This document shows, piece by piece, positions 35,680 to 36,503 of a stretch of 64,000 nucleotides of DNA (position 1 is its first letter; every line of letters begins with the position of its first letter). The stretch spans positions 1-64,000 of the forward strand of contig NZ_HE997645.1 in NCBI RefSeq assembly GCF_000312485.1, given 5' to 3'. The notes below the pieces were generated by a model. That model was not told the origin of the DNA, did no database searches, and was given only the letters and a program-made list of their open reading frames with translations. The translations under genes and the position numbers were made by a program. Origin of the DNA: Yersinia massiliensis CCUG 53443 (GTDB taxonomy: Bacteria > Pseudomonadota > Gammaproteobacteria > Enterobacterales > Enterobacteriaceae).

Positions 35680-36503
35680 ATGCAACAACTACAAAACGTG
35701 ATTGAAACTGCCTTCGAGCGCCGCGCAGACATTACTCCGGCTAACGTAGATACCGTTACGCGCGAAGCGATTAACCATGTCATTGACCTGCTCGATACTG
35801 GTGCACTGCGTGTCGCAGAAAAATTGAAGGTCAGTGGGTGACTCACCAATGGCTGAAGAAAGCTGTACTGCTCTCTTTCCGCATCAATGACAACCAAGTC
35901 ATGGAAGGCGCTGAAACTCGTTATTACGATAAAGTCCCGATGAAATTCGCCGGTTATGATGAAGCGCGTTTCCAGCGTGAAGGCTTCCGTGTTGTGCCTC
36001 CAGCAACCGTGCGTAAAGGGGCATTTATTGCTCGTAATACGGTACTGATGCCCTCTTATGTCAATATTGGCGCTTTCGTTGATGAAGGCACGATGGTTGA
36101 TACTTGGGCGACGGTCGGATCTTGCGCACAAATTGGCAAGAACGTTCACCTATCTGGCGGTGTAGGCATCGGTGGCGTATTGGAGCCTTTACAAGCCAAC
36201 CCAACGATTATCGAAGATAACTGCTTTGTTGGCGCACGTTCCGAAGTGGTTGAAGGGGTTATCGTCGAGGAAGGGTCTGTTATCTCAATGGGCGTGTTTA
36301 TCGGTCAAAGCACCCGTATTTATGACCGTGAAACCGGTGAAGTCCACTATGGTCGAGTGCCCGCAGGATCTGTGGTGGTTTCAGGTAGTTTGCCATCAAA
36401 AGACGGCAGCTACAGCCTATACTGCGCGGTTATCGTGAAAAAGGTTGATGCAAAAACGCGCGGTAAAGTCGGTATCAATGAGTTATTACGCACCATCGAC
36501 TAA
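35680..36503 (+). pseudogene. dapD: Tetrahydrodipicolinate N-succinyltransferase, split by a one-base deletion
   Basis: DapD succinylates tetrahydrodipicolinate in the diaminopimelate/lysine pathway. The first 48 codons (MQQLQNVIETAFERR...ALRVAEK) are in frame. At 35819-35823 a run of five A stands where GAA AAA ATT GAA GGT would need six. The reading frame then shifts and stops at TGA 35839-35841, giving 53 residues. The rest (VTHQWLKKAVLLSFRIND to NELLRTID) continues in the next frame from 35838, with the hexapeptide beta-helix intact. One added A restores 274 residues, the E. coli length. The premature stop overlaps a GTG (GTGA), so re-initiation could in principle make a second fragment. 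No other damage is seen, which suggests a recent mutation or a sequencing error. Confidence 0.93.

What the first reader, a model, noticed from the sequence alone, without database searches (positions are those of the whole stretch)
35680..36503. dapD, normally an essential gene, is split by a single missing A
Seen: the A run at 35819-35823 has five A where GAA AAA ATT GAA GGT needs six; the frame stops at 35841 and the remaining 220 or so codons continue intact in the next frame. Known: DapD is needed for diaminopimelate, hence peptidoglycan and lysine, in enterobacteria. Inference: most likely a sequencing or assembly error in a homopolymer; otherwise a very recent mutation, rescued by re-initiation at the overlapping GTG (GTGA) or by RNA polymerase slippage. 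The absence of other lesions argues against an old pseudogene.
Basis: partly seen in the sequence, partly recalled or inferred. Interest (0 to 1): 0.78.

Follow-up and report, generated by a model that had tools for sequence, protein, structure and literature searches.

The report
Split dapD, probably a sequencing slip
One copy of a normally indispensable cell-wall and lysine gene appears cut in two by a one-letter difference in a run of A's, and the evidence favours a reading error in this draft genome over new biology.

Summary
The frame from ATG 35680 ends at TGA 35839-35841; the rest of DapD is open in another frame to 36503, and the A run at 35819-35823 is five long. The genus is inferred to be Yersinia. 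All 24 other genus members held have an intact 274-residue dapD, and 80 of 80 fetched loci, none titled Yersinia, are open there. The two pieces differ from the nearest relative at 45 codons, all synonymous: no decayed pseudogene. The genome has no second dapD and no bypass gene above cut-off. It shows a mild excess of one-base absences in homopolymers inside ORFs, 7 against 1 in the nearest relative (p = 0.07). Slippage is disfavoured: E. coli RNA polymerase showed none below eight A's (PMC6260861, passages). The GTGA overlap has a base rate of 12%, 31% for ATGA, GTGA or TTGA. A sequencing or assembly error is most likely (about 0.82). A real allele rescued by restart at GTG 35838 is not excluded; its best support is that the G making the overlap is unique among 25 genomes. 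No reads were available.

The parts
35680..35841 (+). 5' piece of dapD: 46 codons of normal DapD, the A run, then an out-of-frame tail to TGA 35839-35841
   Evidence: Pfam THDPS_N_2 positions 1-46 of 67 and NCBIfam TIGR00965 positions 1-48 of 271
35819..35823 (+). run of five A where the two frames part; the only gap in 3845 aligned bases against the nearest relative
35827..35831 (+). AAGGT, a Shine-Dalgarno-like stretch; seven bases lie between its AAGG core and GTG 35838 (by eye; function untested)
   Evidence: read
35838..35841 (+). GTGA: GTG (Val54, in the normal frame) overlapping the TGA that ends the 5' piece; the third base of this codon is G in none of 24 other genus members
35838..36503 (+). 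3' piece of dapD, 221 codons and stop, with the hexapeptide-repeat and C-terminal parts, intact
   Evidence: 218 of 221 residues equal to solved chain 3gos (counted by eye; one of the three differences is the start residue)

Best explanation
The gene in the living isolate is most likely intact. The five-A run is most likely a one-base undercall in a homopolymer, made in sequencing or in building the consensus of this draft. DapD (tetrahydrodipicolinate N-succinyltransferase) would then be made as usual, and the two ORFs in the record are one gene. Shown here: the split, its uniqueness in the genomes compared, purifying selection on both pieces, and no second copy or bypass gene above cut-off. 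Inferred: that the read consensus, not the DNA, is at fault.
For: Only 1 of 25 genus members is split, and none of 80 loci of the genome scan. Both pieces are under strong purifying selection: 45 synonymous and 0 nonsynonymous codon differences from the nearest relative (268 codons compared, the 7 between the pieces left out). There is no second dapD over the cut-off, no meso-DAP dehydrogenase match, and no DapL or acetyl-type DapD over cut-off, so a real null should need added diaminopimelate. Among isolated one-base indels inside ORFs of 120 or more residues, the window's genome lacks a base in runs of four or more 7 times and the nearest relative once, over 907,596 aligned bases. The protein-level count is similar: 7 ORFs broken in the window's genome by a one-base absence, after dropping 2 of 9 flagged, against 1 in the relative. 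The sampled contigs carry N runs of 119-1101 bases, as scaffolded drafts do.
Against: The 7 to 1 skew is not significant (two-sided p = 0.07), and in shorter runs inside ORFs the counts are 1 and 2; the skew in runs between ORFs is weak (31 against 24), so the error rate cannot be high. In one 400 kb stretch the window's genome showed no ORF clearly broken this way and the relative one, by four bases (C1). None of the other broken ORFs looks like a core gene by eye, so some may be real losses, and one of the 7 is not in a homopolymer. One of only 5 window-unique bases in 268 codons falls in the very codon that creates the stop-start overlap, a mild coincidence. No reads or second isolate were available. 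Operator-withheld stretches also read N, so the N runs are weak evidence of draft quality.
Confidence: 0.82

Rival explanations
1. The allele is real and the cell lives by restarting translation at GTG 35838, in the stop-start overlap GTGA after a Shine-Dalgarno-like AAGGT. It would make a 221-residue DapD without the first 53 residues that keeps enough activity.
For: The overlap and AAGGT are there. The G that creates both this TGA and the GTG is unique among 25 genomes; of the 24 relatives only one (L096, TTGA) has an ATG, GTG or TTG overlapping its next +1-frame stop. The 3' piece matches the hexapeptide and C-terminal parts. The two catalytic residues that I recall from mycobacterial DapD work (Asp141, Glu189) fall in the 3' piece; no call checked that.
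Against: An ATGA, GTGA or TTGA overlap occurs at 31% of +1-frame stops counted over codon positions of window ORFs, so the anatomy is ordinary. The restart product lacks most of the N-terminal THDPS_N_2 domain, which all 24 other genus copies keep. No expression data.
Confidence: 0.07
2. A real, very recent mutation in the sequenced colony or DNA stock (for example a clone kept on rich medium with cell-wall precursors, or a mixed population), with no rescue.
For: Zero nonsynonymous change allows a very recent date.
Against: DapD loss removes diaminopimelate for the wall (established knowledge; pathway summarised in PMC3281039, passages). No bypass gene over cut-off was found.
Confidence: 0.08
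3. Recoding: RNA polymerase slippage on the A run or a -1 ribosomal shift yields full-length DapD from this allele.
For: Slippage is known in relatives: an 11-A run in Citrobacter rodentium tssM1 and a poly-A run in Y. pseudotuberculosis tssM3 (PMC4256274, passages). Homopolymer frameshifts in Blochmannia genes are proposed to be corrected so (PMC3017870, passages).
Against: E. coli RNA polymerase showed no detectable slippage on fewer than eight A's or seven T's (PMC6260861, passages). By eye the zero frame GCA GAA AAA TTG holds no X XXY YYZ heptamer. No unusual RNA fold is present (z = -0.10).
Confidence: 0.02
4. An old pseudogene replaced by another route to diaminopimelate.
For: None found.
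Against: 0 nonsynonymous changes in 268 codons against 45 synonymous. No ddh match, no DapL or acetyl-type DapD over cut-off and no second DapD.
Confidence: 0.01

Closest known systems
DapD, 2,3,4,5-tetrahydropyridine-2,6-dicarboxylate N-succinyltransferase (TIGR00965; solved chains 3gos, 1kgq, 3bxy)
   Same: The pieces match the family at positions 1-48 and 53-271 of 271; 218 of 221 and 45 of 46 residues equal to 3gos (by eye)
   Different: Two frames instead of one in this record
Homopolymer undercall in draft genomes
   Same: One-base absence in a run; other one-base absences in runs in the same genome
   Different: The rate here is low and statistically weak
Slippage-rescued poly-A frameshifts (Citrobacter rodentium tssM1; proposed in Blochmannia)
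   Same: Frame break at an A run in an otherwise sound gene
   Different: Five A's here; the tssM1 run has 11, and detectable E. coli slippage needed eight or more A's

Membership tests
DapD (TIGR00965) | Family profile matched over its length | tested here: met
   Two pieces cover 1-48 and 53-271 of 271; the 3' piece alone passes the cut-off, 455.1 against 375.4 bits
DapD (TIGR00965) | One continuous reading frame | tested here: not met
   met in 24 of 24 other genus members
Homopolymer sequencing error | Lies in a homopolymer and is absent from all close relatives held | tested here: met
Homopolymer sequencing error | Genome-wide excess of such one-base absences | tested here: inconclusive
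   7 against 1 in ORFs, p = 0.07; 31 against 24 between ORFs; 907,596 aligned bases, not the whole genome
Homopolymer sequencing error | Raw reads disagree with the consensus | not testable with these tools
   No reads held
Transcriptional slippage site | Run long enough for the host polymerase (eight or more A's in E. coli) | tested here: not met
   Five A's; threshold from PMC6260861 passages
Programmed -1 ribosomal frameshift | Slippery heptamer X XXY YYZ and a stimulatory structure | tested here: not met
   No heptamer in GCA GAA AAA TTG (by eye); fold z-score -0.10
Termination-reinitiation pair | Overlapping stop and start with a ribosome-binding site | tested here: inconclusive
   Present, but 31% base rate for such an overlap; expression not testable
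Old pseudogene | Relaxed selection, further lesions | tested here: not met
   45 synonymous, 0 nonsynonymous codon differences from the nearest relative

The most novel reading that the evidence does not exclude
A living enterobacterium runs its single dapD as two overlapping cistrons joined by GTGA. It would make a 53-residue N-terminal stub and a 221-residue restart DapD, alone or assembled with the stub, and the silent Val54 change to GTG would be the step that let the frame break survive.
Probability: 0.05. Interest if true: 0.55.

Novelty: not a real feature. Interest (0 to 1): 0.12.

Why it matters
If real, it would show that an indispensable trimeric enzyme tolerates loss of most of its conserved N-terminal domain, or that a frameshift in such a gene can be survived through a silent change that makes a restart codon. 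As an error, it is a reminder that an auxotrophy or gene loss should not be read from one draft genome.

Tried and rejected
Second copy of dapD: none over the family cut-off; besides the 3' piece the search gave the 5' piece and one weak match of 21.9 bits. Bypass: no meso-DAP dehydrogenase match. DapL gave 13 matches, none over the cut-off, and the acetyl-type DapD 8 matches, none over the cut-off, the best being the 3' piece itself. Both of these searches also ring in all 14 control genomes, over the cut-off in 2 and 3.

Frameshift-stimulating RNA structure: none. Literature: dapD with frameshift and Yersinia gave 2 papers; PMC11350110 was read for passages and its shown hits are 'dapdiamide' and the like, not dapD; PMC9397018 was seen in the listing only. 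In the listings (one search lists 15 of 37 papers) I saw no report of a split dapD. Of those, passages were read only in PMC2847712, PMC3281039, PMC3017870, PMC6260861 and PMC4256274. Naming the genus through plasmid records failed: 17 records matched, none at 90% identity or more, 10 of them seen.

Rows dropped before counts: of 9 ORFs flagged as broken in the window's genome I dropped one that is the mirror of the relative's own break and one that spans an N run. One-base indels with another indel within 60 bases were left out (30 bases). Alignments under 1000 bases or not above 90% identity were left out.

Full report
What is there. The window carries map, glnD and dapD in a row (gene names for map and glnD by recall from their translations). 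The frame from ATG 35680 ends at TGA 35839-35841, and a 221-codon frame from GTG 35838 runs to TAA 36501-36503. The 5' piece matches the N-terminal DapD family and TIGR00965 positions 1-48; the 3' piece matches positions 53-271 of 271 and passes the family cut-off alone.

Which organism. The genome (G000) is 5.05 Mb in 22 contigs, rated 100% complete. No tool named it. The pieces equal solved chain 3gos at 218 of 221 and 45 of 46 residues (counted by eye), and PMC3281039 (passage) gives 3GOS as Yersinia pestis DapD. I therefore treated it as kin of a listed germ and mended nothing.

Comparison. All 25 genus genomes hold the locus. The 24 others have an intact 274-residue frame; only the window's is split. 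Against the nearest relative G014, 3845 bases around the gene show 183 mismatches and one one-base gap, at this run.

Selection. Compared piece by piece in their own frames, the window and G014 differ at 5 of 46 and 40 of 222 codons (the stop codon included; the 7 codons between the pieces left out), all synonymous. So the break is very recent, or not real, or the protein is still made.

Is it an error? Over 907,596 aligned bases of G000 and G014, isolated one-base indels inside ORFs of 120 or more residues, in runs of four or more, lack a base in G000 7 times and in G014 once (two-sided binomial p = 0.07). In shorter runs the ORF counts are 1 and 2. Between ORFs the counts are 31 and 24 in runs and 39 and 40 elsewhere. 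At protein level, 9 of 813 G014 ORFs with a match were flagged as frame-broken in G000, 7 after dropping two, against 1 of 798 the other way. Five of the 7, dapD among them, lie in contig C3. In the first 400 kb of contig C1 one search lists no long ORF broken by one base in G000; it lists one ORF of G000 broken in G014 by four bases, and one 100-residue ORF of G000 at a T run that has no counterpart in G014. The skew is where an undercalling method would put it, but it is weak. The sampled contigs hold N runs, as in scaffolded drafts, though withheld stretches also read N. Homopolymer miscalls are named as the commonest pyrosequencing error in the Yersinia genus paper PMC2847712 (passages); whether this genome was made that way is unknown.

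Could the cell live with it? There is no second DapD over cut-off, no meso-DAP dehydrogenase match, and no DapL or acetyl-type DapD over cut-off. Slippage: E. coli RNA polymerase gave none detectable below eight A's or seven T's (PMC6260861, passages), while a proven case uses 11 A's (PMC4256274, passages). A ribosomal shift lacks a heptamer (by eye) and a structure. Restart at GTGA is the only route with some anatomy for it: AAGGT upstream, and a G at the third base of codon 54 that no other of 24 genus members has, one of 5 window-unique bases in 268 codons. In 19 of 24 relatives the +1 frame would stop five codons further on; in 5 of 24 it would stop at this same codon, but as TAA with no start codon over it. 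Only 1 of 24 (L096, TTGA) has a usual start codon overlapping that stop. But 31% of +1-frame stops counted over 14,862 codon positions of the window's ORFs overlap an in-frame ATG, GTG or TTG, GTG in 12%, so the overlap is not special, and the odds of the unique base are post hoc.

Verdict. The most likely cause is a one-base homopolymer error in the record; the gene is most likely whole in the isolate. The steps shown are the split, its uniqueness among the genomes compared, the selection on both pieces and the lack of a bypass gene over cut-off. The step inferred is that the consensus rather than the DNA is wrong.

Noticed in passing
37166-39658 (-): An 830-residue ORF in a low-G+C stretch (36001-40000 is 41%) downstream of dapD, with repeats visible by eye and a C-terminal HELGHNMGLSH zinc-protease-like motif (motif recognised by recall); G014 has an 828-residue counterpart.
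   Followed up: no
53727-53803 and 53839-53915 (+): Two tRNA-Met (cat) genes in tandem.
   Followed up: no
G000:C3:107984 and 96097; G000:C1 near 407 kb: Other ORFs broken in this genome by one-base absences but whole in the nearest relative: a GGDEF-like sensor, a winged-helix-like regulator and a phosphatase-like membrane protein (names by eye).
   Followed up: partly
G000:C3:425658 and 426518; G000:C1 near 548 kb: Further broken ORFs: an inverse-autotransporter-like adhesin gene, a DeoR-like fragment, and a 202-residue ORF overlapping an usher-like gene that itself spans an N run (names by eye). Described only.
   Followed up: no
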